A stretch of 41,399 nucleotides of DNA from Streptomyces somaliensis DSM 40738. GTDB lineage: Bacteria; Actinomycetota; Actinomycetes; Streptomycetales; Streptomycetaceae. Location: positions 1 to 41,399 of the forward strand of contig JAAXOU010000010.1 of NCBI GenBank assembly GCA_012396115.1, read 5' to 3'. Positions 12,867 through 35,609 of this stretch are shown piece by piece. The translations under genes were made by a program, and so were the position numbers. Position 1 is the first letter of the stretch; each line of letters begins with the position of its first letter. The notes below the pieces were generated by a model. The model saw only the letters and a list, made by a program, of their open reading frames with translations, had not been told where the DNA came from and ran no database searches.

Positions 12867-13661
12867 ATGACGAACGTCTACGGGGAGTGGCTGAAGGCGC
12901 AGCGGGAGGTGTCCGGCCTCACCCAGCAGGAGCTGGCCGACCTCGCGATCATGACGCGCTCCCACATCGCCCACATCGAGGCGGGCCGCCGGATCCCGTC
13001 GGCGGAGGACGCACGGCGGCTGGACGCGGCGCTGGGCACGGGGAACGTCCTGCAGAGCTTCCTGCCGAAGCAGGACGTGGCGGTCGCGGACTACTTCGAG
13101 ACGGCGCTTGAACTGGAGCAGCAGGCGACGGTGATCCAGGAGTTCGCGCTGTCCCTCGTGCCTGGCGTCCTCCAGACGGAGGGGTACGCCCGTGCGGTTC
13201 TGCGGCCGAGTGTCACCCCCCGGAGTGAAGAGGAACGTGACAGGCTCCTTGTCACACGGCTGAGGCGAGGAACGATCCTCTCCGACCCGGCCACTCCGTT
13301 ATTCTGCGCCCTCCTGGACGAGGCGGTACTACGCCGCCACGTCGGGAGCCCAGAGGTCATGGCGGAGCAACTGACCCACATCGTCGGCTTGGTGGAGGCC
13401 GATCGGGTTCGTGTGCACGTACTCCCCTTCGGGGCGGGCTATCACCCGCTACTGCAAGGGATGCTGTCGCTGATGATGTTCGATGACCAGCCTCCGGTCG
13501 CCTACGGCGAGGGAGTGCTCATGGGCAAGCTGCACGACTCGCCCGCCATGGTCGAGACGTTGCAGCGCACCTACACTCTCGCCTTGGGCGACGCGCTCCC
13601 CCGCAAGGAGTCGCTCGCCCTACTGAGGGCGACTGCGGAGGAATACGAGCACGATGACTGA
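12867..13661 (+). CDS. Scr1-type helix-turn-helix regulator (XRE HTH plus DUF5753)
   Basis: 264 residues from ATG 12867, behind GAAGGGG. Residues ~8-60 are an XRE-type HTH (LTQQELADLAIMTRSHIAHIEAGRR). The rest is the DUF5753 domain with its characteristic LVPGVLQTEGYARAVL segment. These proteins pair with DUF397 proteins in Streptomyces; the S. coelicolor Scr1/Scr2 and WhiJ-type pairs affect development and antibiotic production and have been described as toxin-antitoxin-like. It overlaps the DUF397 gene by 8 bp. The pair sits on the strand opposite to the restriction genes, between hsdS and hsdR, which may make it a local controller. Palindromes before and inside the gene suggest autoregulation. 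Confidence 0.92.
   Translation: MTNVYGEWLKAQREVSGLTQQELADLAIMTRSHIAHIEAGRRIPSAEDARRLDAALGTGNVLQSFLPKQDVAVADYFETALELEQQATVIQEFALSLVPGVLQTEGYARAVLRPSVTPRSEEERDRLLVTRLRRGTILSDPATPLFCALLDEAVLRRHVGSPEVMAEQLTHIVGLVEADRVRVHVLPFGAGYHPLLQGMLSLMMFDDQPPVAYGEGVLMGKLHDSPAMVETLQRTYTLALGDALPRKESLALLRATAEEYEHDD
13237..13255. promoter_or_regulatory. Second GTGACA-N7-TGTCAC repeat, inside the HTH gene
   Basis: Perfect arms 13237-13242 and 13250-13255, spacer GGCTCCT. Same arms and same spacing as 12835-12853, 402 bp downstream. It might allow looping or roadblock repression; chance cannot be excluded. Confidence 0.5.
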
Positions 13662-13863
13662 GCGCACCATCCCGAACGCGGCCATATTGAGCGGCTGGCG
13701 CAAATCTTCGTACAGCAGCGGGGACGGCGGCAGCTGCGTAGAGGTGTTGGACGACCACCCCTCGGGGGTTCCGGTCCGTGACTCGAAGATTCCTAATGGC
13801 CCAGCTTTGGTCTTCCGCAACTCCAACTGGTCGTCTTTCGTCGCCGCCGTTAAAGACACCTAG
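13654..13863 (+). CDS. DUF397-domain protein
   Basis: 69 residues, starting at ATG 13654 inside the end of the HTH gene (8-bp overlap), with GGAGG upstream. It has the DUF397 signature: GWRKSSYSSGDGGSCVEV, then VPVRDSK and a C-terminal WSSFVAAVK. DUF397 proteins act together with the adjacent DUF5753-HTH protein, probably by direct binding; the biochemical activity is unknown. The gene stops 6 bp before the convergent hsdS stop. GTCCTGATCAGGAC, a perfect 14-bp palindrome at 13863-13876, covers this junction and both stop codons or their edges. Confidence 0.95.
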   Translation: MTERTIPNAAILSGWRKSSYSSGDGGSCVEVLDDHPSGVPVRDSKIPNGPALVFRNSNWSSFVAAVKDT

Positions 13864-13869
13864 TCCTGA

Positions 13870-15063
13870 TCAGGACCTGCCGCTCAGCAGATCGTCCACG
13901 AGCCCTTGCTTCATGTTCCTCAGCTTCACAAGCTCGGCCTCTTCTAGGCGCTGCTGTACAGTCACGGCTGCCAAGCGGTCAAGGATTGCGCGCTGTTCCC
14001 GTACCTCGATGCAAGGGAACGGGCAGTCGCGGACGTCGTCGCCGTTGATACTGGCTTGAGAAATAGCACTCTTGGCGCGCACCCTAAAGTACTTCTTAGG
14101 CAATACACTACCCAGCCACATTTCGACAAATGCTGGCACAGCTCGGTCAGATCGAACCTTACACCGCATCATGTTCGACTCAAAGATGGTCGGCTCAGTC
14201 AGTTCACGAACTGCCGTGGATTTTCCAACCAGTTCCGGCGTGTTCACTCGATTGATGACAATGTCACCGACAGCGAGTCCATAAGAGGACGCCTCCGATT
14301 CGGTCACCGAGACCCTTAGGAGGTTCCGAGTGAAGTCCGACGGGCCTCCTTTGAAGCTGTCAATGCGAACAATGGGTGTCCCCTCGACACCATACGAAGA
14401 AGCCTGTTTGTAGATCCCGTTCTGCGGTCCATACTCGATAACGTCCTCAAAACGGCCAAGCTCGACACCGCCGAGTTGCGCGGACGCCACGCCGTCCCCG
14501 ACCTTCTGCAGCTTGGCAACGGACCGCGCAATGGCACCTTCTTGCGCCGCCACCGCGTCGATCACCTCGACGATCCGCCGCTGCTCGGGCAGAGGCCGTA
14601 GAGGAAAGAGCAAGGCCCCGAAACGGTCCCCGCCAAGGTGGGCGATGCTCGTCGTCTGCTTTGCAACAGCGGCGAACACACCGGTAGCTAGCCACCGCTC
14701 AAAAATGATCTGCGCATACGCGGGAAGGACTTCACCACCAGGACGAAATCGCACAAGCGTATTTTGGAAGCAGTAATCACCCGCAGCACCTTCATAGATC
14801 GCGCTACGCCCAACAAGTTCCAGACTCTGCCCCTCGTTCAACAAGATATCGCCCGGCTTGAGTCCATAGATTCTCCGCTCGTCAGAACTGAATCCCATGA
14901 AGTTCACGTCGGAGTAGTCGATGCGCCCCAGAAGAACGTTCGCGACCCGTAGGTACGGAAATTTCCCGGTGGCTTCCCTGCTGCTCGGCGAGAGCTGCTT
15001 GCCCATGCGGACCTCGCCGACCTCCCGCACGGGAACCCAACGGATCTCGGCGTCACTCGACAT
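13870..15063 (-). CDS. hsdS: Type I restriction-modification DNA specificity subunit
   Basis: 397 residues. The usual two halves are seen: target-recognition domain 1 ([26 protein letters not shown]), a central conserved helix after [15 protein letters not shown], then domain 2 ([31 protein letters not shown]) and a closing helix with [10 protein letters not shown] and [13 protein letters not shown]. HsdS sets the bipartite sequence recognised by both the methylase and nuclease complexes. ATG 15063 overlaps the hsdM stop by 11 bp, so expression is coupled. Base composition is clearly lower in GC and codon use more mixed than in hsdM, mainly in the recognition domains, as expected of exchanged specificity domains. 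The target sequence cannot be read from the protein. Confidence 0.95.
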
Positions 15064-26706: not shown

Positions 26707-26744
26707 CGCGTGCGGCCCCGCGCGGCCCCGGACGGCCGCCGCGG

Positions 26745-27524
26745 TCACAGCAGCCCGGCGGCGTCCAGCAGGTAGGCGGTCATCGGCTCGTAGGAGCGGG
26801 GGTCCAGGACGTGGTCGTCGAGGGGGACGACCACCTGGAGGACGCCCTCGGCCTCGCCGACGAAGAGGGCCGGGTCGTTGCAGTCCGCGTAGCCCACCGT
26901 GTCGATGCCGCGCTGCGCGGCGCGGCCCGCCCAGCCGTGGTCGGCGACGACGAGGTCCGGAAGGGCCTCGCCCGCGGCGCGCAGGCCGTCCAGGATCGCG
27001 CTCATCGGCTCCGGGGAGTGGGTGTGCCACAGCGTGGCGCCCCGTTCGAACACCGCCACGTCGGCGAACTGCACCACGTACCCCTCGTCGGCGGTGAGCC
27101 CGCCGGGGATGCGGACGACGTCGCAGCCGGCGGCGCGCAGCGCGGCGGCGGTGCGGCCGTGCACGTCCAGGAGCGCGCCGGGGTGGCCGGTCGCCAGGAG
27201 CACCCGCTGCCGGGCGTCGGCGGCCTTGCGGAGGCGGACGGCCATCCGGTCCAGGGCGTCGACGGTGAGTTCCGGGTCGATGGTGTCCCGGCCGGTGCGG
27301 TGCTCGGGGTCGTCGTCGACGCCGCACCGCTCGGCCATCACCGCGAGCACGTCCTGCTCGTCGGTCCAGCGGTCGCCCAGCTCCAGGCCCAGCCAGTAGT
27401 GGCGGTCGCCGTTCGCGAGCCCGCGGTAGTGGGCGAGGTTGTTGTCGCGGGGGGTGGCGACGTCCCCCGCGATGCGCGTGCGGACGAGGTGCTCGACGAG
27501 GGCGGCGCGGCTGGGTATCGGCAT
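26745..27524 (-). CDS. Actinobacterial phosphatase-family protein
   Basis: 259 residues from ATG 27524. The sequence matches the family I know from Streptomyces annotation as 'phosphatase': MPIPSRAALVEHLVRTRIAG, NNLAHYRGLANGDRHYWLGLE, then LLATGHPGALLDVH, GATLWHTHS, VVADHGWAG, IGYADCNDPA-like YADCNDPALF and VPLDDHV. Several conserved His and Asp residues (GHPG, HTHS, DHGW, DDH) could form a metal site. The real substrate is not known to me. Soluble, single-gene unit, convergent with the dehydrogenase and divergent from the lamin-tail gene. Confidence 0.82.
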   Translation of the reverse strand: MPIPSRAALVEHLVRTRIAGDVATPRDNNLAHYRGLANGDRHYWLGLELGDRWTDEQDVLAVMAERCGVDDDPEHRTGRDTIDPELTVDALDRMAVRLRKAADARQRVLLATGHPGALLDVHGRTAAALRAAGCDVVRIPGGLTADEGYVVQFADVAVFERGATLWHTHSPEPMSAILDGLRAAGEALPDLVVADHGWAGRAAQRGIDTVGYADCNDPALFVGEAEGVLQVVVPLDDHVLDPRSYEPMTAYLLDAAGLL

Positions 27525-27744
27525 TCCCCCATTGTGCCGCCCGCCTCCGGCGGCGGCCGGGGCGTCCGGCGGCGCGTCCGCGGCGTGTCCGGGGCGGGAC
27601 CTTCGGCCCTACCGGCGGGAAACCCGCCCGCAACCTCCGCTTGGCCCGGCAGACTGGCGCCCGCCACCCCACCCCGCCCGGGACGCGGACGTCCCCGAAC
27701 GGCCGGGCCGCCCGTGCCCGGCACCGCTGGAGAAAGGCACCTCC

Positions 27745-28275
27745 TTGAACCGTGCGATACGCGCCGCCGCCCTGTCGACGGCCGTCCTGTCCCTCGCCGC
27801 GCTGTCCCCCGCCGCGCTGTCCGCGGACGCCCGGGCCGCGTCCACGACGGGCGCCCTGATGATCACCCACGTGCGGCCCAACACCTCGGGCGCGGACGTC
27901 CGGGACGGCCGTCAGCTCAACCTGAACGGCGAGTACTTCCTCATCAGGAACGTCACCACGCGGACGGTGAACACGGGCGGGTACGTCCCCGACATCACCT
28001 CCAACACCTACGGCCGCGTGCTGCCCTCGTACAACCTGCCCGCCGGCGCCAAGGCGTACGTGCACACCGGCAGCGGCACCAACCACCGGGACGGCAGCGG
28101 CTGGCACCACCTCTACCGGGGCTACGGGCGGCACGTCCTGCCCAACGACGCCCGGTCCCGCACCCCCGACCTGCGGCTGAAGAAGCCGGGGAGCCCGGAC
28201 GACAACACGTCCACCGGCTCCATCAGCTCCTGCAACTGGAACCTCGCGGCGGACGGCACGACGTACGCCTGCTGA
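27745..28275 (+). CDS. Secreted lamin-tail domain protein
   Basis: 176 residues. TTG 27745 was chosen: GGAGAAAGG stands 7 bp upstream and the frame then starts LNRAIRAAALSTAVLSLAALS, a signal peptide with cleavage near ADARA-AS. The mature part (~37-176) has lamin-tail (LTD) features: IRNVTTRTVNTGGYVPDI, LPAGAKAYVHTGSGT and a closing SSCNWNLAADGTTYAC with two Cys. Such domains are found on secreted nucleases and surface proteins; here there is no catalytic domain. Function outside the cell unknown. Confidence 0.85.
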   Translation: MNRAIRAAALSTAVLSLAALSPAALSADARAASTTGALMITHVRPNTSGADVRDGRQLNLNGEYFLIRNVTTRTVNTGGYVPDITSNTYGRVLPSYNLPAGAKAYVHTGSGTNHRDGSGWHHLYRGYGRHVLPNDARSRTPDLRLKKPGSPDDNTSTGSISSCNWNLAADGTTYAC

Positions 28276-28613
28276 GATCGGGGGGCGTGAACGGGCCGTC
28301 CGAGGTGGCACCCGCCCCCCGGGCGGCCCTTCGCTTGCCGTCCGGGTGGCGGCGCGGCCGCCGGGGCCGTGCGTGCGGCTCGATCCACGGGCACGCCGTC
28401 GGGAGCTGCTGCCGCGAAGGCACCGCGGGCGAGACGGTGGAGCAGGGCGTCCGTGGTGGAGCGGCGGATCAGGCGGCGATGGCCAAGGGAACTCGGCACA
28501 TGAGGGTGGTTCCTCGACGGCAAGGCGGAGTGAGTACGAGATGTTGCGGGGGTGAGGGTCCGCGAGCTCGGAGCGGAGGGAGGGGCATTCCGGGCTCGCG
28601 GGTCTCTGCGGAG
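28276..28613. other. Intergenic region with a possible hairpin and a gene relic
   Basis: 338 bp between convergent genes. A GGGGGGCG (28280-28287) / CGCCCCCC (28313-28320) repeat may end the lamin-tail transcript. 28405-28476 resembles the 3' end of a TetR gene. I see no intact gene. Confidence 0.6.
28405..28476 (-). pseudogene. Relic of the 3' end of a TetR gene
   Basis: Read leftwards it gives RSTTDALLHRLARGAFAAAAPDG, against RPSTGPLLHRLARGALAAAAPRD at the end of the intact TetR at 34911-35513. The DNA also aligns well (for example CCGCGGGCGAG and CGGTGGAGCAGGG). Only ~70 bp are left, with no upstream part. Confidence 0.6.
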
Positions 28614-29351
28614 CTACTTCGTGGCGACGACGTAGACGCTGCCCCAGCGGCGCTTCGGGTTGGCCATGGTGGGGTCGAACGTCCAGGGCTCGACGGTGGT
28701 GAAGCCGGCCTCGGTGAAGAGCTGGACGAGCTTCTCGTGGTCGTACGCCCACAGGTGCGGGGTGTAGGTGGGGTCGTCGTCCTGGTCGCGGAAGACGAGG
28801 TTCACGAGGTCGAGTCGCGTATTGATGTCGCCGCGGCAGTCGCGCTTGGCGTACCAGCGCTCGATCGTCTCGTCAGAGGTGTCCAGGGGGCCGGGGTACT
28901 GGCTCAGGGCGAAAGCGGCGTCGGGAACGCCGGTGATGACTCGGCCGCCCGGCATGAGGGCGCGGTGGGCCTCGCGGACGTAGTGCTTGGCCGAGCGCGG
29001 GTAGTCGATGTGCTCCAGGAAGTGCTCGGAGAAGATCTCGTCGGTGCTGTCGTCCTGGAGGGGGATGCCCTCGCGGATGTCCCAGAGGAGGTCGGCCGGC
29101 GGAACGAGGTCGATGTTGAAAAAGCCGTCGATGCGGTGGGCTCCGCCGCCGATCTGCACTTTGCCGGGCTTGTCGTCGATGCGGCCGTTGGGCCAGGCCC
29201 GGCGGCTGGCGTGGTGGTAGCGGTGGAGTTCGATCTCCTTGGCGGCGGCCCGGAGGGTGCGGGCGAGGCCGTGGGGAGTGGCGGGGTCGGTGAGCACCGA
29301 GGCGATCTGTTCGCCGAGGAGGTCGACGGAGGGCATGCCGGAGGGACTCAT
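28614..29351 (-). CDS. SAM-dependent class I methyltransferase
   Basis: 245 residues from ATG 29351; a GTG directly before it gives one extra codon, but TAGGAG spacing favours the ATG. The SAM site is KVQIGGG (68-70), then an acidic loop end NIDL (Asp81), IPLQDDSTDEIFSEHFLEHI and a GGRVITGVPD strand, as in Methyltransf_11 proteins. The C-terminal LFTEAGF is also typical. Acceptor unknown. It is the last gene of the leftward six-gene set, 60 bp after the 464-aa gene, so it probably modifies a product or substrate of that set. Confidence 0.88.
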   Translation of the reverse strand: MSPSGMPSVDLLGEQIASVLTDPATPHGLARTLRAAAKEIELHRYHHASRRAWPNGRIDDKPGKVQIGGGAHRIDGFFNIDLVPPADLLWDIREGIPLQDDSTDEIFSEHFLEHIDYPRSAKHYVREAHRALMPGGRVITGVPDAAFALSQYPGPLDTSDETIERWYAKRDCRGDINTRLDLVNLVFRDQDDDPTYTPHLWAYDHEKLVQLFTEAGFTTVEPWTFDPTMANPKRRWGSVYVVATK

Positions 29352-29411
29352 CACGGATCTCCTACGTGTGAGGTTGCTCGGGGTGAGGTGGGCCGCGAAT
29401 GGCGGTGATGG

Positions 29412-30806
29412 TCAGGCGGCACTGGGTGCGGGGGCGGTCCACTGGTTGTTGCGCATGAGGGTGTACTTGATGTCCACCAGTCGCGGGGCGATGGTCAGCG
29501 CGAACTCTTCGGCCGGGTGGAGGTGACCGGTGTCGTCCTGCTCGGCGCGCCAGACGCGGTAGTCGAGGTTGGGGTAGGCCGGGTTGATGCCGATCTCGCC
29601 CTTGGGCATCGTGCCGTTGAACGGGGTGACGATGTCCATGTGGTTCCAGTAGTTCCAGGCTTGCAGCGCCTTGTGCTGGTCGAAGTAGAAGTAGAAGTCG
29701 GGGTAGCGGCCGAAGGTGCGCAGTTCCCGGTGGATGAGGTGACCGAGCAGCGGTCCGAGCTGGGCGGTCAGGGAGTCGAACTCCCAGCGCGTGTGGTGCC
29801 AGGCTCCGGGGGCGTCGCCGGGCGCGAAGAGGCGGGCGGCGACGAGGTAGCTGATCCGCTCGACCAGGTACGCGCTCGCGTGGCTGGTGTCGATAGTCGG
29901 GTCGACTCGGTGGATGAGCACGGCCAGCTGCTTCGGACGGGGACGGAACCGCGCGAGGTCGAACTTGCCGGCCATGGCGGGGAAGGAGGCGAACAGCATC
30001 TCCTTGTACAGCCAGTTGTTCAGCTCGCCGAGTTCGGCCAGGCGCCGGGTGTGGGGAGACGTCGAGTGGAGCATCAGGTACTCGGCGACCGCTTCGAAGT
30101 ACAGGTAGCCCAGGATCGGCAGCCGAGGGATCGTCTCGTCGAGCAGCTTGAGGAACGGCTCGGCGTCGACCAGGCTGCCCTGGTAGGCGACAGCGGCAGC
30201 AGTAGCGAGGAACGCGGCCGAGTTCTTGACCCGGCTCACGACGGTCTCGCGCAGCTGGTGCCGTTCGTTCTTGCTCAGCAGGTATTCGAGGTGGCTGTAG
30301 ATCTGCAGGTGGATGAGGCCCAGTCGCAGGTAATCCACGCCGGCGAGTCCGCGATACGCCTGCGGCGGAGTGCCGATCTCGAAGATCAGCGGGGTGGGGA
30401 CGCGATCGGTGACGCCGAGCTTGGCCAGGAAGGCCGGCGCTTCCTTGGTCAGGACGTAGGCGCCGAGGTTGTGCATGCGGAAGCCCTGGTCGGTTGCGGT
30501 GAGCGGTGCGCAGTAGATGCTTCCGACGAGGCAACCGCCCGACGGGTAGAGCACTCCCTGCCGGCTGATCTCCTCCAGGGCGTGGGTGACGTGCAGCAGG
30601 TACAGCTTGCCGCTGACGCTCAGGGCCTCGAAGAGGGCGTTCTGCCGCAGCAGGTGGCCGTTCGGGGTTTCCTCGGCGAGCCGTCGCTCCCAGTCCGCGG
30701 CCTGGACGGCGAGCGGGTCGAAACGGTCGACCGAGGCAGGGATGAGCGTGGAGTCGAAGAAGGCGTGGGCGTCGGCCCACAGGTGGTAGGCGTCGAGGAA
30801 GTCCAT
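29412..30806 (-). CDS. Unrecognised 464-aa protein of the nucleotide-type cluster
   Basis: ATG 30806 lies 2 bp after the stop of the HD-domain gene, so the two are coupled; the upstream frame inside the HD gene is not used. The protein is soluble, mostly helical, rich in aromatic residues (FYFYFDQ, WNYWNH) and His (HHTRWEF, HLIHREL). The N-terminal half has LLHVTHALEEISR, a Gly/Cys-rich YPSGGCLVGSIYC and LRLGLIHLQIYSHLEYLL. The C-terminal part has GTMPKGEIGINPAYPN and VDIKYTLMRNNQW. I know no family and see no standard catalytic motif. The adjacent HD, CYTH and NDK genes suggest a job with nucleotides or phosphorylated compounds. Good candidate for structure prediction. Confidence 0.85.
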   Translation of the reverse strand: MDFLDAYHLWADAHAFFDSTLIPASVDRFDPLAVQAADWERRLAEETPNGHLLRQNALFEALSVSGKLYLLHVTHALEEISRQGVLYPSGGCLVGSIYCAPLTATDQGFRMHNLGAYVLTKEAPAFLAKLGVTDRVPTPLIFEIGTPPQAYRGLAGVDYLRLGLIHLQIYSHLEYLLSKNERHQLRETVVSRVKNSAAFLATAAAVAYQGSLVDAEPFLKLLDETIPRLPILGYLYFEAVAEYLMLHSTSPHTRRLAELGELNNWLYKEMLFASFPAMAGKFDLARFRPRPKQLAVLIHRVDPTIDTSHASAYLVERISYLVAARLFAPGDAPGAWHHTRWEFDSLTAQLGPLLGHLIHRELRTFGRYPDFYFYFDQHKALQAWNYWNHMDIVTPFNGTMPKGEIGINPAYPNLDYRVWRAEQDDTGHLHPAEEFALTIAPRLVDIKYTLMRNNQWTAPAPSAA

Positions 30807-30808
30807 GG

Positions 30809-31573
30809 TCAGACCAGGCCCTTCTCGGCGAGCGCGTAGCGGACGGCCGCACTGCCGCTGGCCCCGGCGAGGTAGGCCCGCTCCGAGACCAGGACCAGGT
30901 CGAAGGCGAGGCCACGCAGCTGGTCGAAGGCCGGCTCGCGAACGTACCGAGACTCCGGCCACCACTTCAGCTTCGGCAGGCGGTACCGGTCCAGGGCATC
31001 GGCGGCCTTCACCACGTCGGTGATGCGCTCGGCCCGGGCGTGGTCACGCTGGTCGTCTGCGGTGAACGCCTCGTACGGGACATCGTGCAGCCGGACGGCG
31101 GTAGCCGCCTGAATGATCCGCCGTGGACTTGCGGTGAGCCCGAAGTGCTCCCAGACGGTGTCGGCGTTTGCGGCGAGCCAGATGGCCGCGCGAGCGCCAT
31201 GTCCGCGATCGTCCTGGTCGTGGCGCCGCTGGCAGTCGTGTACGGCGGCGGCCAGGATCACCGTAGCGGCATCGGCGTCGCCGAGGCCGTTCACCTCAGC
31301 GAGGACAGCGGCGAGTGCCGCCGTCCTCATGGCGTGCCGGACGCCGTGAAGCGACGTGTACAGGCGGGGGTCCGCCCACCATCTGGTGGGCAGTCCGCCG
31401 TTCGCGAGCAGCTCCTTCGACTGCGGGCGCAAGACCGGTGCCTGCGTCGGCGGAAGGCTGGTCCTGTGATCGCTGATCCACGCGATGGTGGCGTGGTCCA
31501 TGTGCTGGTGGAGCGGGAGCTGCCCTCGGGCAGCCAGGTCGATCAGACTTGTGGTCAACGGGGTCGTGCTCAC
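30809..31573 (-). CDS. HD-domain protein (putative phosphohydrolase)
   Basis: 254 residues from GTG 31573. HD-type metal residues can be seen: LHGVRH (His76, His80), AAAVHDCQ (His112-Asp113), then an acidic-His stretch RRHDQDDRGHGARAA, and a later KAADALDRY with an Asp that often completes the site. Family members hydrolyse phosphate esters of nucleotides, including cyclic and hyperphosphorylated ones. The 464-aa gene starts 2 bp downstream; the CYTH-like gene ends 39 bp upstream. A pair of nucleotide-making and nucleotide-hydrolysing enzymes is possible here (inference). Confidence 0.82.
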   Translation of the reverse strand: MSTTPLTTSLIDLAARGQLPLHQHMDHATIAWISDHRTSLPPTQAPVLRPQSKELLANGGLPTRWWADPRLYTSLHGVRHAMRTAALAAVLAEVNGLGDADAATVILAAAVHDCQRRHDQDDRGHGARAAIWLAANADTVWEHFGLTASPRRIIQAATAVRLHDVPYEAFTADDQRDHARAERITDVVKAADALDRYRLPKLKWWPESRYVREPAFDQLRGLAFDLVLVSERAYLAGASGSAAVRYALAEKGLV

Positions 31574-31612
31574 TCGTGCCCACCCCCTTGGTGGTGTCCG
31601 CGGTGAAGTTCC

Positions 31613-32197
31613 CTACCGGATCGGCGCAGCCTGCTGCTCGCGCTCCTTGCGCTCCTTCTCGGCCGCCTCGAAGGCAGCGGTGAAGTCGGCCAGCTCCTGC
31701 TCCGTCATCAAGGCCACGCCGAGTGCCATGGCGACATCCGTGATCTTGGCCTCCGCCTCGGCGCGAGCGGCGTCCGAGGCCCCGTCCTCCAGCAGAACTT
31801 CGAACTCCGCGTGGTAGCCCCACGCCTCACTCCACTTGACCGCGATCTCGACGCCGTCGAAGCGGAAGTTATGACGGAAGTTGAACGCCTCGTGCATCGC
31901 CGCCTCGAAGCCGAGGGCGTTGAACACCTTCACCGCGGCGGGAACGTCGGTGGGGGCGATGGCGAACTCAGTCTCCGTGAAGGCCGCGCCCTGCCCGATC
32001 TTGCTCCCCTTCAGGGTGATCTTGGCGGTGCCGGCGGCGGTGTTGTCGGTGACCTTCAGGAGCTGGTCGGGCAGCACGTAGAAGTAGATGTGCTTGTCGT
32101 CGGGGCCCAGGTCCTCGCCGTCCGCCTTCAGGCGGGTGACGAGCCGGTCGTGGACCTCCTTGGTGAAGCGGGCGCGCATCTCGATTTCGACGGCCAC
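31613..32197 (-). CDS. CYTH-like protein
   Basis: 194 residues from GTG 32197, with GAGGAGG upstream. The start VEIEMRARF gives Glu4-x-Glu6-x-Arg8, the ExExK motif of CYTH proteins with Lys changed to Arg. Alternating charged strands follow (LLKVTD, AKITLKGSK, TETEFAI, NFRHNF, EIAVKW, AEFEVLL), which would line the tunnel, ending in a charged helix (EAAEKERKEREQQ). CYTH enzymes are triphosphatases or class IV adenylate cyclases. The Arg change and low similarity leave the activity open. The gene lies downstream of a strong hairpin and 39 bp before the HD-domain gene. Confidence 0.72.
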   Translation of the reverse strand: MAVEIEMRARFTKEVHDRLVTRLKADGEDLGPDDKHIYFYVLPDQLLKVTDNTAAGTAKITLKGSKIGQGAAFTETEFAIAPTDVPAAVKVFNALGFEAAMHEAFNFRHNFRFDGVEIAVKWSEAWGYHAEFEVLLEDGASDAARAEAEAKITDVAMALGVALMTEQELADFTAAFEAAEKERKEREQQAAPIR

Positions 32198-32302
32198 GGG
32201 GCTGCTGCCTCCTCGTTTCAGGCATGGCGAAGCCAGCCGGCCCCTGCCGTTCGGGGGCTGTCCGGTCGGGCGATCGCTATGGGATTGGTGGTCGAGCGCG
32301 GA

Positions 32303-32336
32303 GTGATGCGGCCGATGCGGGTGCCGGCCGCATCAC
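32303..32336. terminator. Intra-cluster hairpin (attenuator or terminator)
   Basis: GTGATGCGGCCG (32303-32314) pairs perfectly with 32325-32336, loop 10 nt. On the leftward strand it comes ~20 nt after the stop of the 99-aa gene and ~105 nt before the CYTH-like gene, so it could reduce expression of the downstream genes relative to ndk. Confidence 0.65.
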
Positions 32337-32355
32337 CCCGGTGGATCGGCGGGTG

Positions 32356-32655
32356 TCAGCCGAAGGTGCCGAAGCGCTCCTCAACAACTCCCGAGTGCAG
32401 GTAGGTCGGCAACGGGACGCCTCCCACCGACGAACGGCTGGTGGCGACCTGCTCCTCCGTCTCGCTGGGGAAGCCCTCCAGCAGCCGCAGGCACTGCTGG
32501 GCCCATTCCTGCGACGCGGGCCAGTCACCCAGGTCACGGTGGCGCACGGCCAGGGCGTACGCGGTCTCGGTGGCGGCCCACCGGTCGGTCACCAGCTCAC
32601 GCTGGAAGATCGACTCCAGCTCGTCGGTGGAGGCCGGGCGGGTCTGGTTGGTCAT
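32356..32655 (-). CDS. Small TPR-like protein
   Basis: 99 residues from ATG 32655, preceded by GAGAGGG. The middle has one TPR-like helical pair: AYALAVRHRDLGDWPASQEWAQ and the following LRLLEGF. The rest is short and polar (THR/SER-rich, GVPLPTYLHSG). Similar short repeats occur in Streptomyces proteins of unknown role. Likely a protein-binding partner of the cluster. It is 80 bp downstream of the NDK-like gene and followed by a hairpin. Confidence 0.75.
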   Translation of the reverse strand: MTNQTRPASTDELESIFQRELVTDRWAATETAYALAVRHRDLGDWPASQEWAQQCLRLLEGFPSETEEQVATSRSSVGGVPLPTYLHSGVVEERFGTFG

Positions 32656-32735
32656 GGTGCCCTCTCGGTTCAAACGGTCGTGCCCCAGTGGTGATCAACG
32701 CCCCGGCGTCTTCGCGGTGACGCCATGACCCGCCG

Positions 32736-33245
32736 CTAGTACGTGTAGATCTCGGCCAGCGTCTGGTAGTCCTGCAGCTCATCCTTGTCGAACCACAGCT
32801 CCACCTCCTGCTTAGCCTCCTCCACGTTGCCGGAGGCGTGCACGAGGTTGGCGACCGCCTTGCCGGAGGCGATGCTGGCCGCAGCGCTGTAGTGCGAGAA
32901 GTCACCCCGCACCGTGCCGGCCGGAGCCTGATTCGGGTACGTGCTGCCGACGATCTTGCGGACGGTGGCAATGGCGTCGAAGCCCTCCAGCACCAGGGCG
33001 ATGACCGGCCCCTGCTGCATGAACGTCGCCGTGAGGCTGTAGACCTCCGAACCCAGCCGCTCTTCCAGGTCGAAGTAGTGCTTGCGGGTGAACTCCTCGT
33101 CCATCCACTTCATCTTGGTGCCGACGATCTTCAGTGCGGCGTCTTCGAATCGAGTGATAATCCTTCCTGCCAGGCCACGCGCCAGCGCATCGGGCTTGAG
33201 CAGGACGAGCGTGCGCTCGACAGTGTGTGCCTGAACCTCGGCCAT
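32736..33245 (-). CDS. Nucleoside diphosphate kinase-like protein
   Basis: 169 residues from ATG 33245 behind AAAGGGAG. NDK moves the gamma phosphate of ATP to NDPs through a phospho-His. The key parts are present: LVLLKPDAL (Lys17), GTVRGDFSHYS and NLVHASGN with catalytic His136. It is ~30 residues longer than the housekeeping ~137-residue enzyme, with extra residues in the N-terminal half and at both ends, and has TYP where TNP is usual. It therefore looks like a specialised second NDK rather than the core ndk gene. First gene of the leftward set; a perfect 8-6-8 palindrome stands 32-53 bp upstream of its start. Confidence 0.92.
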   Translation of the reverse strand: MAEVQAHTVERTLVLLKPDALARGLAGRIITRFEDAALKIVGTKMKWMDEEFTRKHYFDLEERLGSEVYSLTATFMQQGPVIALVLEGFDAIATVRKIVGSTYPNQAPAGTVRGDFSHYSAAASIASGKAVANLVHASGNVEEAKQEVELWFDKDELQDYQTLAEIYTY

Positions 33246-33276
33246 TGACTCCCTTTCGCCTTGCTAGCAACCGAAC

Positions 33277-33298
33277 ATGACGGACAATCATCCGTCAT
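33277..33298. promoter_or_regulatory. Operator-like palindrome ATGACGGA-N6-TCCGTCAT
   Basis: Perfect 8-bp arms (33277-33284, 33291-33298) with spacer CAATCA. It is ~32 bp upstream of the ndk-like start and ~355 bp from the HTH-NUDIX start. A dimeric HTH protein is the likely ligand, the HTH-NUDIX protein being the nearest candidate. Confidence 0.7.
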
Positions 33299-33449
33299 CC
33301 GCTGAGGTTACCGGCGCTGACAGGACGGTTCGGGCGTGCGGGCAATGCCCCGGACGGGCGAATGCTGGCGGAGGCACGACCGATCGGCCGACTGAGAGGA
33401 CCGATTCGGCCAAGTTCCCTCTTTCCGCTATCCGCTGGGGGTGCGCACC

Positions 33450-33455
33450 TAGAAT
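33450..33455 (+). promoter_or_regulatory. -10 box for the NUDIX pair
   Basis: TAGAAT, one base from the TATAAT consensus and AT-rich against its surroundings, ~200 bp upstream of the GTG. The -35 region is not recognisable, so this may be an activator-dependent promoter. Confidence 0.4.
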
Positions 33456-33653
33456 CTCCCTGTGGTCGTCTGGCGCTCCCGCGCCTCTCATACGCCTTCC
33501 AGGGACTGAGCCTTCGGTAGGTGGCTCCTTGGCCCCTGGTGACTCCGATTCTTCCGGGGCTCTTCCCACGTGACCATGAAGTGCCAGTGCAGTGGGAGTG
33601 CACTTCCGGCGCGCGGATTCCTGCACGGAGGCGGCGACGAAGGGGGCAGTCTT

Positions 33654-34313
33654 GTGGACGTCATCGAGCGCTGGAGCGGCCGGTACGCCTGCCTGCTGCA
33701 GTCCGCCCTACGGCTCGGCAACGAACAGTTTGCCGCCCACCTGGGCATCGCCGTGAGGACGGTGGCCGCTTGGCACTCCGACGCGTCCGTCGTGCCTCGC
33801 AGGGAGATGCAGCAGCTCCTCGACACGGCCCATGAGCAGGCTCCTCCGGCTGCGCGACAGCGCTTCGCGCTCCTGCTGGCGAAGGAACGGGCCCCGGTGG
33901 ACTCGACGCCGCCCGGCGCGCAGGCGCTGCGGGTGGCCATCGCGGTGGTCGCCCGCGACAGCGATGTCCTCCTGGTGTGCCGGCGGGACGATAACGCCGC
34001 TGGAATCACGTGGCAGTTCCCGGCCGGTGTCATCAAGCCGGGCGGCAAGGCGGAGACCACCACCGTGCGGGAGACCTTGGACGAGACGGGTGTGCACTGC
34101 GCGGTCCGGCAGCACCTCGGGAACCGCCTCCACCCCGTGACCGGCGTGCTCTGCGAATACTTCCTGTGCGAGTACCTGGCCGGCGAGGCCACCAACAGCG
34201 ACACGGCCGAGAACATCGACGTCATGTGGGTCCCCGGAGACGCGGTGCCCCGCTTCATCCCCGTCGATACGATCTTCCCACCCATCCTGGCGGCCCTGGA
34301 GGAGCAGACGTGA
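33654..34313 (+). CDS. HTH-NUDIX protein with degenerate Nudix box
   Basis: 219 residues from GTG 33654, with AAGGGGG 7 bp upstream. The N-terminal ~60 residues form a helix-turn-helix: LLQSALRLGNEQFAAHLG then IAVRTVAAWHS. Residues ~92-215 are a NUDIX fold with WQFPAGVIKPGG and VRETLDETGV. Against Gx5Ex7REUxEExGU the seventh position is Gly131 instead of Glu, and EE is Asp143-Glu144, so hydrolysis may be weak or absent. HTH plus NUDIX without activity is the logic of NrtR-type sensors, though in reverse domain order. It overlaps the next NUDIX gene by 4 bp (GTGA). Likely a nucleotide-sensing regulator for the locus (inference); a working hydrolase is the alternative. Confidence 0.85.
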   Translation: MDVIERWSGRYACLLQSALRLGNEQFAAHLGIAVRTVAAWHSDASVVPRREMQQLLDTAHEQAPPAARQRFALLLAKERAPVDSTPPGAQALRVAIAVVARDSDVLLVCRRDDNAAGITWQFPAGVIKPGGKAETTTVRETLDETGVHCAVRQHLGNRLHPVTGVLCEYFLCEYLAGEATNSDTAENIDVMWVPGDAVPRFIPVDTIFPPILAALEEQT

Positions 34314-34723
34314 CGAACCAGAACACGGACGAGCGACCGGGCATCGCCGCAGCCATCGTCGTGAACGAGGGACGCGTGCTGATGGTGCGCCGCCGGGTCA
34401 GTGAGGGACAGCTCTCCTGGCAGTTCCCAGCCGGAGAGGTCGAGCCCGACGAGACCCGCGAGGACGCCGCCGTGCGGGAGACCCGGGAGGAGACAGGGCT
34501 GACCGTGGCGGCCGTGAAGCTGCTCGGCGAGCGCGTCCACCCGAAGACGGGCCGGCTGATGTCGTACACCGCCTGTGAGGTACTGGACGGCACGGCCCAT
34601 GTCGCGGACATGGAGGAACTGGCCGAACTGGCCTGGGTCGCCCACGGCGAGATCCCGCAGTACGTGCCGTACGGACTCTTCGAGCCGGTGCAGGACTACC
34701 TGGACGAAGCCCTGGGCTTGTAA
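34310..34723 (+). CDS. NUDIX hydrolase
   Basis: 137 residues from GTG 34310, overlapping the stop of the HTH-NUDIX gene. The Nudix box is complete: Gly42, Glu48, Arg56-Glu57, Glu60-Glu61, Gly63. SWQFPAGEVEPDE is shared in form with TWQFPAGVIKPGG of the upstream protein, so the two domains may be old duplicates. It should cleave a nucleoside diphosphate linked to another moiety; substrate unknown. Cytoplasmic. Together with the degenerate partner it makes an enzyme-plus-sensor pair. A GC-rich hairpin follows before the convergent TetR gene. Confidence 0.92.
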   Translation: MTNQNTDERPGIAAAIVVNEGRVLMVRRRVSEGQLSWQFPAGEVEPDETREDAAVRETREETGLTVAAVKLLGERVHPKTGRLMSYTACEVLDGTAHVADMEELAELAWVAHGEIPQYVPYGLFEPVQDYLDEALGL

Positions 34724-34873
34724 AACAGGACGAATCCAACCCGGTGCGTCTGCGGCCGGTAGAGCCGGACGCGTTCGCTGGTGACGCGGGCCGGGGTGGT
34801 GAGCGCCACAGCCGGCCCCATGCCGCCCCCGTACGGCTTAGTCCGCCGGGGTTCCCGAGTCCGCCGGGGCCTT

Positions 34874-34905
34874 CCGCCCGCGCGGGCGTGCGCCCGCGCG
34901 GGCGG
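34874..34905. terminator. Two-way GC-rich hairpin
   Basis: CCGCCCGCGCGGGCG (34874-34888) pairs with 34891-34905; a practical loop would open the inner bases. Each half is also self-complementary. It is between the stops of the NUDIX gene (34723) and the convergent TetR gene (34911). Confidence 0.65.
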
Positions 34906-34910
34906 CGGGT

Positions 34911-35513
34911 TCAGCGGCCCTCCGGGTCCCGGGGGGCCGCCGCCGCGAGGGCGCCGCGGGCGAGGCGGTGGAGCAGGGGGCCCGTGGAGGGGCGGCCGGT
35001 GAGGGCGCCGGCGAGGTGCGGGGTGGAGTTGAGCAGGCCGAACACCGCGTGGACGGCCGCCCGGGCGTCGGCCTCGTCCAGCGTCGGGTACGCCTCGCGC
35101 ACCGCGTCGACCCACAGCTCGACGTACTGGCGCTGCAACTGGCGGACGCGCTTGCGGTCGGCGTCGCGCAGGCGGTCCAGCTCGCGGTCGTGGAGGGTGA
35201 TGAGCGACCGGTCGTTGAGCGCGAAGTCGATGTGGCCGTCGATCAGGGCGGCCAGCAGCGCCTCGGGGTCGCCGCCGGACTCGGCGACGCGGCGGCGGCC
35301 GCCGTCGAGGAGGCGCTCGCTGATCCCGACGAGCAGCTCGGCGAGCATGGCGTCCTTGCCCGCGAAGTGCCGGTACAGGCCCGGACCGCTGATGCCGACC
35401 GCCGCGCCTATCTCGTCGACGCCCACGCCGTGGAAACCGCGCTCGGCGAAGAGGCGGGCGGCCTCCCGCAGGATCTGCTCGCGCCGGGTCGGGGCGTCGG
35501 TCCTGGTCGTCAT
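34911..35513 (-). CDS. TetR-family repressor of the acyl-CoA operon
   Basis: 200 residues from ATG 35513. The N-terminal HTH is typical: RREQILREAARLFAERGFHGVGVDEIGAAVGISGPGLYRHFAGKD. The remaining helices (ALIDGHIDFALNDRSLITLHDREL) form the ligand domain, as in TetR proteins that control actinobacterial acyl-CoA catabolism. It is divergent from the carboxylase gene with two matching palindromes in the 96-bp gap, so it probably represses that operon and itself. An acyl-CoA intermediate of the pathway is the likely inducer (inference). A relic of a related TetR end is at 28405-28476. Confidence 0.92.
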   Translation of the reverse strand: MTTRTDAPTRREQILREAARLFAERGFHGVGVDEIGAAVGISGPGLYRHFAGKDAMLAELLVGISERLLDGGRRRVAESGGDPEALLAALIDGHIDFALNDRSLITLHDRELDRLRDADRKRVRQLQRQYVELWVDAVREAYPTLDEADARAAVHAVFGLLNSTPHLAGALTGRPSTGPLLHRLARGALAAAAPRDPEGR

Positions 35514-35534
35514 GGACCGATTCTAGACAAGGCG

Positions 35535-35550
35535 GTTAGCGCTCGTTAAC
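35535..35550. promoter_or_regulatory. TetR operator, copy 1
   Basis: GTTAGCGCTCGTTAAC: GTTAxCG arms around CT with one mismatch. Located 22 bp before the tetR start. Confidence 0.75.
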
Positions 35551-35563
35551 CTTGGCGATGCAC

Positions 35564-35579
35564 GTTAACGCTCATTAAC
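35564..35579. promoter_or_regulatory. TetR operator, copy 2
   Basis: GTTAACGCTCATTAAC, the same 16-bp design as copy 1 with centre CT, 29 bp away and ~31 bp upstream of the carboxylase start. Both sites share the core GTTAnCGCTCnTTAAC. Confidence 0.75.
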
Positions 35580-35609
35580 GCTCTCGTACGGGCAAGGGGA
35601 CTCGACACG

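What the first reader, a model, noticed from the sequence alone, without database searches (positions are those of the whole stretch)
28614..34723. Candidate new nucleotide-type locus: NDK, TPR, CYTH, HD, unknown protein and methyltransferase, divergent from two NUDIX genes
Seen: six genes in one direction and a GTGA-coupled pair in the other, with one perfect palindrome between. Known: NDK, CYTH, HD and NUDIX families all act on nucleotides or phosphorylated compounds. Inference: the set could make, sense and remove a modified nucleotide, or salvage one, with the 464-aa protein as the unknown key part and the methyltransferase modifying the product. The extra, elongated NDK argues against housekeeping. 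I cannot tell apart signalling, biosynthesis and phage defence.
Basis: partly seen in the sequence, partly recalled or inferred. Interest (0 to 1): 0.75.

Follow-up and report, generated by a model that had tools for sequence, protein, structure and literature searches.

The report
Mobile nucleotide operon with hidden ART
A small mobile cluster of genes, kept together in many Streptomyces and in a few tiny-genome bacteria and archaea, seems to make or process an unusual nucleotide, and its unknown central protein looks like a new kind of enzyme of the ADP-ribosyltransferase (NAD-using) fold.

Summary
In detail: a conserved, mobile operon, not a chance assembly. In 46 of 55 fetched loci with enough DNA, CYTH is present in 37/39 Streptomycetaceae, 3/3 Micromonosporaceae and 4/4 CPR/DPANN; HD in 38/39, 3/3, 4/4; the methyltransferase in 39/39, 3/3, 3/4; NDK in 37/39, 3/3, 0/4. 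Other lineages add further nucleotide enzymes: a thymidylate-synthase homologue, a cytidine deaminase, P-loop kinases.

NUD1 joins an HTH-like region to a NUDIX domain with a degenerate box (0 of 24 canonical); NUD2's is intact (32 of 32). A 14-nt element before NDK occurs once in this genome. Here the operon is inserted beside a TetR gene.

Best reading: a transferable, self-regulated nucleotide-modification pathway using NAD. Its product is unknown; defence remains possible.

The parts
28401..28473 (.). left copy of a 73-nt direct repeat, a copy of the 3' end of the TetR gene
   Evidence: 82% identical to 34932-35004; 65 bp, 84.6%
28614..29354 (-). SAM-dependent methyltransferase, 246 aa
   Evidence: Pfam Methyltransf_11 6e-6, above cut-off; present in 39/39, 3/3 and 3/4 judged loci
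29412..30806 (-). P464, 464 aa, no Pfam family; predicted ADP-ribosyltransferase-like core with a large helical insertion; candidate H72-Y98-E404
30809..31573 (-). HD phosphohydrolase-like, 254 aa, ends 2 nt before P464
   Evidence: invariant H80, H112-D113, D192 and others in 21 sequences; weak HD profile hits in PDB, E 0.0035 and 0.0042
31613..32197 (-). CYTH / triphosphate tunnel metalloenzyme-like protein, 194 aa
   Evidence: profile hits 1yem 3.5e-9, 2een, 2dc4; invariant E4, E6, R8, K48, K63, E75, R108, K121, E131, E133 in 23 sequences
32299..32340 (-). conserved RNA hairpin between the TPR and CYTH genes
   Evidence: inverted repeat I15; 12 pairs, 93.1% of cells paired in 17 loci, 16 cells changed on both sides against a shuffled mean of 4.6
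32356..32673 (-). small TPR-like protein, 105 aa, found only in the Actinomycetota loci
   Evidence: weak TPR hits; 37/39 and 3/3, but 0/4 in CPR/DPANN
32736..33245 (-). second nucleoside diphosphate kinase, 169 aa
   Evidence: Pfam NDK 1.9e-38; other copy at G000:C525
33277..33298 (.). perfect palindrome with 8-bp arms, imperfect in most relatives
33304..33317 (-). conserved 14-nt element GCGCnGGTAAnCTC before NDK, the only exact copy in the genome; likely promoter or operator
   Evidence: 29 of 35 upstream regions; single site in G000
33570..34313 (+). NUD1: HTH-like N-terminal region plus NUDIX domain with a degenerate Nudix box; likely sensor-regulator
   Evidence: Pfam NUDIX 7.1e-14; box not canonical in 24 of 24 assigned copies; conserved N-terminus
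34310..34723 (+). NUD2: NUDIX hydrolase with an intact Nudix box
   Evidence: Pfam NUDIX 3.1e-22; canonical box in 32 of 32 assigned copies
34932..35004 (.). right copy of the direct repeat, in the 3' end of the TetR gene (34911-35513, minus strand)

Best explanation
This is a self-contained, horizontally transferred operon that makes (or remakes) a modified nucleotide inside the cell. P464 is an enzyme of the ADP-ribosyltransferase (ART) fold that most likely uses NAD+ to transfer or exchange a ribosyl or ADP-ribosyl group on a nucleotide-like acceptor. NDK and the lineage-specific kinases, deaminase or thymidylate-synthase homologue supply the nucleotide. CYTH handles a triphosphate and HD removes phosphate. 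The methyltransferase decorates the product. NUD2 hydrolyses the product or a harmful by-product. NUD1, an HTH-like region on a catalytically degenerate NUDIX domain, senses the nucleotide or ADP-ribose and switches the divergent operon through the conserved upstream element. Shown: gene content, conservation, mobility, Nudix boxes, the upstream element. Likely but not proven: the ART fold. Inferred: NAD use, order of steps, product, role of NUD1 and of the element.
For: Core CYTH-HD-P464-MT conserved from Streptomyces to CPR/DPANN. Independent nucleotide enzymes near P464: thymidylate-synthase homologue (2.2e-10) and P-loop kinase (2.2e-7) in L040, cytidine deaminase (3.8e-8) in L045 and its homologue in L044; weaker P-loop hits, below Pfam's cut-offs, in L034 and L039; Ham1 (4e-20) downstream in L036; thymidylate kinase (3.6e-24) 6-7 kb from P464 on a plasmid, L082. 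Pairwise identities of P464, HD and CYTH correlate at 0.97-0.98 over 42 loci; P464 with HD 0.93 and with CYTH 0.96 within Streptomycetaceae. ART fold: top 7 of the 50 VIA rows shown, and 14 of the 19 rows spanning the core (9 different proteins), for the L040 homologue; 4 of 5 spanning rows for the window protein; H72, T74, Y98, E404 invariant in 23 sequences down to 39% identity. NUD1 box degenerate, NUD2 box intact. Element GCGCnGGTAAnCTC found at the operon in 10 of 12 operon-bearing genomes.
Confidence: 0.45

Rival explanations
1. Anti-phage or conflict module: the ART-fold protein produces a toxic or signalling ADP-ribose derivative (or a chain-terminating nucleotide) on infection, and HD, NUDIX and CYTH control or clear it.
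For: Patchy (P464 in 32 of 295 genomes) and mobile. pPIWI-RE pairs lie next to the operon in L008 and L020 and next to a P464 homologue in L059; a type I restriction gene beside L009. Some copies lie beside phage-tail genes. HTH-Nudix regulators, and HD among the phosphatases, are predicted in ADP-ribose conflict systems (PMC9503650, section 3.8).
Against: No operon protein but the generic NUDIX and methyltransferase domains hits PADLOC. No genome-level link of P464 with pPIWI-RE: 11 of 32 carriers against 74 of 263 others, Fisher p 0.54. Arbitrary chromosome pieces also gave PADLOC hits, one of them a DpdF at 6.3e-292: 41 families from 103 proteins against 72 from 114 flank proteins. No ARG glycohydrolase, which defines the published systems, is among the operon's Pfam hits.
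Confidence: 0.22
2. Salvage or sanitation: the operon cleans up or recycles damaged or non-canonical nucleotides.
For: MutT-like NUDIX, Ham1 near L036, deaminase, kinases, NDK.
Against: Housekeeping copies would suffice; P464 is absent from 263 of 295 sampled Streptomyces genomes; a methyltransferase and an ART fold are not expected.
Confidence: 0.15
3. RNA-end chemistry: CYTH as RNA triphosphatase, the ART-fold protein as an ADP-ribosyl (NAD-like) capping or Tpt1-like enzyme, the methyltransferase as cap modifier, NUD2 as decapping enzyme.
For: Best VIA row for the L040 model is Tpt1, tied with others. NUD2's NCBIfam hits include RNA pyrophosphohydrolases (8.4e-12), among many other NUDIX families.
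Against: NDK, thymidylate-synthase homologue, deaminase and small-molecule kinases point to free nucleotides; none of NUD2's NCBIfam hits shown reaches its cut-off.
Confidence: 0.08
4. P464 is not an ART; the weak structural rows reflect a common alpha/beta arrangement, and the operon's chemistry does not use NAD.
Against: ART proteins fill the top of the list for one model and lead it for the other, two homologues at about 45% identity, and the invariant residues lie in the order of an H-Y-E triad.
Confidence: 0.25

Closest known systems
ADP-ribosyltransferase superfamily (Tpt1, RES, diphtheria and pertussis toxins, SPN NADase, PARP)
   Same: predicted core fold; H-x-T, Tyr and Glu in the same order (the triad is recalled knowledge)
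   Different: about 240-residue helical insertion inside the core, no detectable sequence similarity, found in metabolic-looking operons
Nucleoside antibiotic operons (puromycin pur, ADG adgB-E; PMC9239236 section 6)
   Same: small operon proposed to start from a nucleoside triphosphate, with dephosphorylating enzymes
   Different: no oxidase, aminotransferase or transporter among the eight genes; CYTH, HD, NDK and an ART-like protein instead
ARG-centred ADP-ribose countering systems with HTH-Nudix regulators (PMC9503650 section 3.8)
   Same: regulator with NUDIX sensor plus HTH, HD phosphatase in some, patchy
   Different: no ARG, Macro or chaperone hit; contains a candidate transferase, NDK, CYTH and methyltransferase
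NrtR regulators (recalled; mentioned in PMC9503650)
   Same: NUDIX domain used as a sensor in a DNA-binding protein
   Different: HTH-like region is N-terminal to the NUDIX domain; ligand and binding not tested

Membership tests
ADP-ribosyltransferase superfamily (P464) | ART fold | tested here: inconclusive
ADP-ribosyltransferase superfamily (P464) | conserved catalytic motif of the H-Y-E type (recalled) | tested here: inconclusive
   H72-x-T74, Y98 and E404 invariant in 23 sequences; their closeness in space was not measured, no coordinates at hand
ADP-ribosyltransferase superfamily (P464) | NAD+ binding or turnover | not testable with these tools
   needs protein
CYTH / triphosphate tunnel metalloenzyme | profile similarity to solved CYTH proteins | tested here: met
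   1yem 3.5e-9, 2een 2.3e-8, 2dc4 5.4e-8 (that these three are CYTH proteins is recalled), 7ns8 triphosphate tunnel metalloenzyme 0.035
CYTH / triphosphate tunnel metalloenzyme | ExExK signature (recalled) | tested here: inconclusive
   E4-x-E6-x-R8 invariant, Arg in place of Lys; other charged residues invariant
HD phosphohydrolase | H...HD...D metal ligands | tested here: met
   H80, H112, D113 and D192 (also D186, D195) invariant in 21 sequences; Pfam cut-off itself not reached
Nudix hydrolase, NUD2 | Nudix box Gx5Ex7REUxEExGU | tested here: met
   32 of 32 NUD2 copies assigned by anchor
Nudix hydrolase, NUD1 | Nudix box Gx5Ex7REUxEExGU | tested here: not met
   0 of 24 NUD1 copies assigned by anchor; 10 unassigned boxes that also fail are of NUD1 type by eye. 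NUDIX domain by Pfam, catalysis doubtful
HTH-Nudix transcription regulator (NUD1) | DNA-binding HTH region | tested here: inconclusive
   conserved N-terminus; of six NUD1 proteins scanned, Pfam HTH_3 only in the L034 version, 7.5e-4, below cut-off
Known anti-phage defence system | match to a PADLOC system | tested here: not met
   only generic hits: PDC-S07 to the NUDIX domains and mad2, weak, to the methyltransferase
ARG-centred ADPr countering system | ADP-ribosylglycohydrolase (ARG) gene | tested here: not met
   no ARG hit among the eight proteins

The most novel reading that the evidence does not exclude
P464 founds a new family of NAD+-using ART enzymes dedicated to small-molecule nucleotides: it swaps or adds an (ADP-)ribosyl group on a nucleotide or base, and the operon matures this into a methylated, phosphorylated nucleotide not known from any cell, kept under control by a pseudo-Nudix sensor and carried as one cassette in Streptomyces, candidate phyla and DPANN archaea.
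Probability: 0.25. Interest if true: 0.85.

Novelty: new variant of a known kind. Interest (0 to 1): 0.62.

Why it matters
An ART-fold enzyme at the centre of a nucleotide-processing operon would extend NAD chemistry from toxins, RNA repair and protein modification into nucleotide biosynthesis. The cassette is compact, conserved and can be moved into a laboratory Streptomyces, so the question 'what does it make?' can be answered by mass spectrometry. The family also links divergent Streptomyces sugar-nucleotide clusters of unknown product.

Tried and rejected
Pfam (to E 10 on 25 members), NCBIfam, PHROGs, PADLOC and PDB sequence searches for P464 gave no family. Foldseek gave nothing significant (window model against PDB; L040 model against BFVD). 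Profile-profile comparison with RES (six sequences) and DarT (two) was not significant; RES did no better than the two unrelated controls, and the best DarT alignment falls on the H-x-T motif but its P-value is 0.1; the profiles are too shallow to decide. Rfam found no family at its gathering scores in 28000-35600. P464 had no match in 50,697 phage records. A pPIWI-RE link looked attractive, but genome-level co-occurrence is not significant; three direct neighbours remain unexplained. The control for defence flanks is small, its places were chosen by me, and it counts families, not proteins (25 of 72 and 25 of 41 families were shown), so enrichment is left open; only 10 of the 114 flank proteins were looked at one by one. 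The perfect palindrome was considered as the operator, but its perfection is not conserved; the 14-nt element is the better candidate. Eight paper searches showed no listing that describes the operon; the library is open-access only, so this is weak evidence of novelty.

Rows dropped: one search set aside 9 of 55 loci as too short (L004, L013, L018, L021, L030, L031, L039, L047, L048). The 46 kept include two near-copies (L008/L014, 98.9% over 7.6 kb), and L073-L078 come from a second collection that may overlap in species. All loci were found through P464, so its own 100% presence is by construction. The tree and the correlations left out L001 and L029. In the NUD1/NUD2 box count 13 boxes were not assigned by the rule. 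Open frames over 1200 aa were left out of the flank set and of the control set.
Full report
Observation. Pfam supports NDK, both NUDIX domains and the methyltransferase. HD and CYTH become clear only from alignments of relatives. The 464-aa protein (P464) has no family in Pfam, NCBIfam, PHROGs or PADLOC and no significant PDB sequence relative. The locus has a lower G+C (0.66-0.69 for 29001-34000) than most of the window.

Conservation. A scan of one genome per species found 47 loci with a P464 relative. With two viral contigs and six operon-clade loci among the 20 regions, 55 loci were tabulated; 46 had enough DNA. In Streptomycetaceae (n 39) NDK 37, TPR 37, CYTH 37, HD 38, MT 39, NUD1 32 and NUD2 32 are within 7 kb of P464. 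In Micromonosporaceae (n 3) NDK, TPR, CYTH, HD and MT are in 3 and the NUDIX pair in 2. In CPR/DPANN (n 4) CYTH is in 4, HD in 4, MT in 3, NDK, TPR and NUD1 in 0, a NUD2 relative in 1. Two copies look decayed: L042 lacks NDK, TPR, CYTH and most of HD, and in L043 P464 matches only in pieces. Pairwise identities of P464, HD and CYTH run in parallel (r 0.97-0.98 over 42 loci; P464 with HD 0.93 and with CYTH 0.96 within Streptomycetaceae), so the core travels as a unit.

Distribution. P464 is in 32 of 295 Streptomyces genomes: 16 above 800 bits (the operon clade), one at 622 bits (G206), one partial (G092), 13 at 348-406 bits (a divergent clade), and one fragment (G175). In samples of other groups it was found only in the centre genome or nearly so: 1 of 346 in the phylum sample (own genome), 2 of 379 around a Parcubacteria genome (one is the centre), 1 of 279 around a Nanoarchaeota genome (the centre). 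It is in 6 plasmid records, all divergent (40-50% identical), and in no phage record. The CPR and DPANN sources are metagenome bins by their titles, so their taxonomy is only as good as the binning.

Nucleotide context elsewhere. In L040 (Woesebacteria) P464 is followed by a thymidylate-synthase homologue (2.2e-10), a second CYTH, a P-loop kinase (2.2e-7), a NUDIX-like gene by eye and a NUD2 relative. In L044 and L045 a cytidine deaminase lies between CYTH and HD. In L034 a P-loop gene (best Pfam hits 1.3e-5, below cut-off; ADK 0.0027) follows P464, and in L036 a Ham1 gene (4e-20) lies downstream. The divergent clade instead sits with NAD-dependent epimerases, sugar-nucleotide dehydrogenases, glycosyltransferases, aminotransferase-like and TauD-like genes (by eye or by the plasmid records' annotation), in five loci (L061, L063, L064, L071, L072) with the HD gene beside it and without a CYTH hit; one plasmid copy has a thymidylate kinase, a radical SAM gene and a NUDIX gene some 6-9 kb away.

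Other parts. CYTH keeps E4, E6, R8, K48, K63, E75, R108, K121, E131 and E133 in 23 sequences. NUD2 has a perfect Nudix box in 32 of 32 copies assigned; NUD1 in 0 of 24, with another residue (mostly Gly, Ala or Val) where the first Glu belongs and Asp, Asn or Ala for the first Glu of the EE pair. Thirteen boxes were not assigned by the anchor rule; by eye ten are NUD1-type (none canonical, one read through a stop) and three NUD2-type (all canonical). NUD1's N-terminus is conserved in 12 sequences and HTH-like by eye, but of six NUD1 proteins scanned Pfam sees an HTH only in L034. This is why NUD1 is read as a sensor.

Control region. Upstream of NDK the block GCGCnGGTAAnCTC is in 29 of 35 regions (window and 34 loci); in the 34 loci it occurs 28 times on both strands together, which are the 28 upstream copies. 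In 20 whole genomes it gave 14 places: 10 at the operon (10 of 12 operon carriers) and 4 elsewhere (G289, G265, and 2 of 8 non-carriers), against 3 for the reversed control pattern, so the places away from the operon are at background. In the window's genome it is unique, at 33304-33317. The palindrome at 33277-33298 is perfect only here and, slightly different, in L012. Between TPR and CYTH a hairpin is conserved in 17 loci: 93.1% of cells paired (at most 60.0% when slid), 16 cells with compensatory changes in 3 pairs (shuffled mean 4.6, 0 of 500 as high; the number of such pairs, 3, is reached by 133 of 500 shuffles). Its fold energy in the window alone is only mildly low (z -1.77).

Mobility. 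The operon lies between two copies of the TetR 3' end (73 nt, 82%). In all 150 Streptomyces genomes searched, own included, there is a match to this TetR DNA, weak in two (G099, G102). Of the 29 relatives' loci fetched (1.5 kb on each side), none has the operon there; in 15 the matched TetR end is followed, in 13 of them after 31-282 nt and in two after 801 and 1066 nt, by the gene that in the window lies at 26744-27541; in 11 others only the acyl-CoA dehydrogenase end is seen downstream, and in 3 nothing more of the window matches. So about 7.4 kb is extra in the window, of which 6.6 kb lie within the repeats. Direct repeats flank the operon in 4 further loci at other targets (L007 126 bp, right copy 2.6 kb away; L008 231 bp; L012 532 bp; L019 115 bp): 5 of 34 with the window, several with short flanks; L010 and L022 have only short chance-like repeats. 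Four operon loci (L023, L027, L049, L050) and two divergent ones (L066, L068) lie beside a shared set of genes read as phage-tail genes, distantly like Streptomyces phage ZL12 (67.5% over 14% of the query) and a Tsukamurella phage tape-measure gene.

Defence question. Among 114 flank proteins of 29 loci PADLOC (E 1e-20) lists 72 families, against 41 for 103 proteins from 20 arbitrary chromosome pieces; many in both are generic kinases, and the control includes a DpdF. pPIWI-RE pairs adjoin the operon in L008 and L020 and P464 in L059, yet 85 of 295 genomes have pPIWI-RE and P464 carriers overlap no more than expected (11 of 32; p 0.54). Defence is possible but not favoured.

Literature. Read: section 3.8 and passages of PMC9503650, section 6 and passages of PMC9239236, passages of PMC12691670; others only as search listings. 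None describes this operon in what I read.

Verdict. A real, conserved, mobile operon; nucleotide chemistry well supported by gene content; an ART-like P464 likely; product and purpose open.

Noticed in passing
window 28401-28473 and 34932-35004: The operon is bracketed by two copies of a TetR gene's 3' end, although none of the eight genes between them is an integrase by Pfam; other copies of the operon have different flanking repeats (L007, L008, L012, L019).
   Followed up: partly
L023, L027, L049, L050; L066, L068: P464 modules of both clades lie next to the same set of phage-tail-like genes, distantly like Streptomyces phage ZL12.
   Followed up: partly
L059 9037-10482; L008; L020: A 56% P464 homologue overlaps the end of a pPIWI-RE defence gene; two operon copies also adjoin pPIWI-RE pairs.
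   Followed up: partly
window 32299-32340: Conserved hairpin with compensatory changes between the TPR and CYTH genes, without a run of T after it; perhaps mRNA processing or attenuation.
   Followed up: partly
L061, L063, L064, L072, L082, L083, L084, L086: Divergent P464 proteins sit in unexplained Streptomyces and Nonomuraea clusters with sugar-nucleotide enzymes and glycosyltransferases, some on linear plasmids.
   Followed up: partly
L012 and L020: S. zagrosensis carries two different copies of the operon on two contigs. The two S. ipomoeae copies (L031, L032) are identical over 11 kb and may be one region assembled twice.
   Followed up: no
window 13001-15000: G+C falls to 0.65 and 0.57 in a window otherwise at 0.66-0.79, as if something foreign lies there.
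   Followed up: no
L003, L011, L032, L037, right of the operon: An ATPase-like gene (Pfam HATPase_c_2 in 11 of 114 flank proteins) may often lie just beyond the methyltransferase; assignment to these loci is by position and size only.
   Followed up: no
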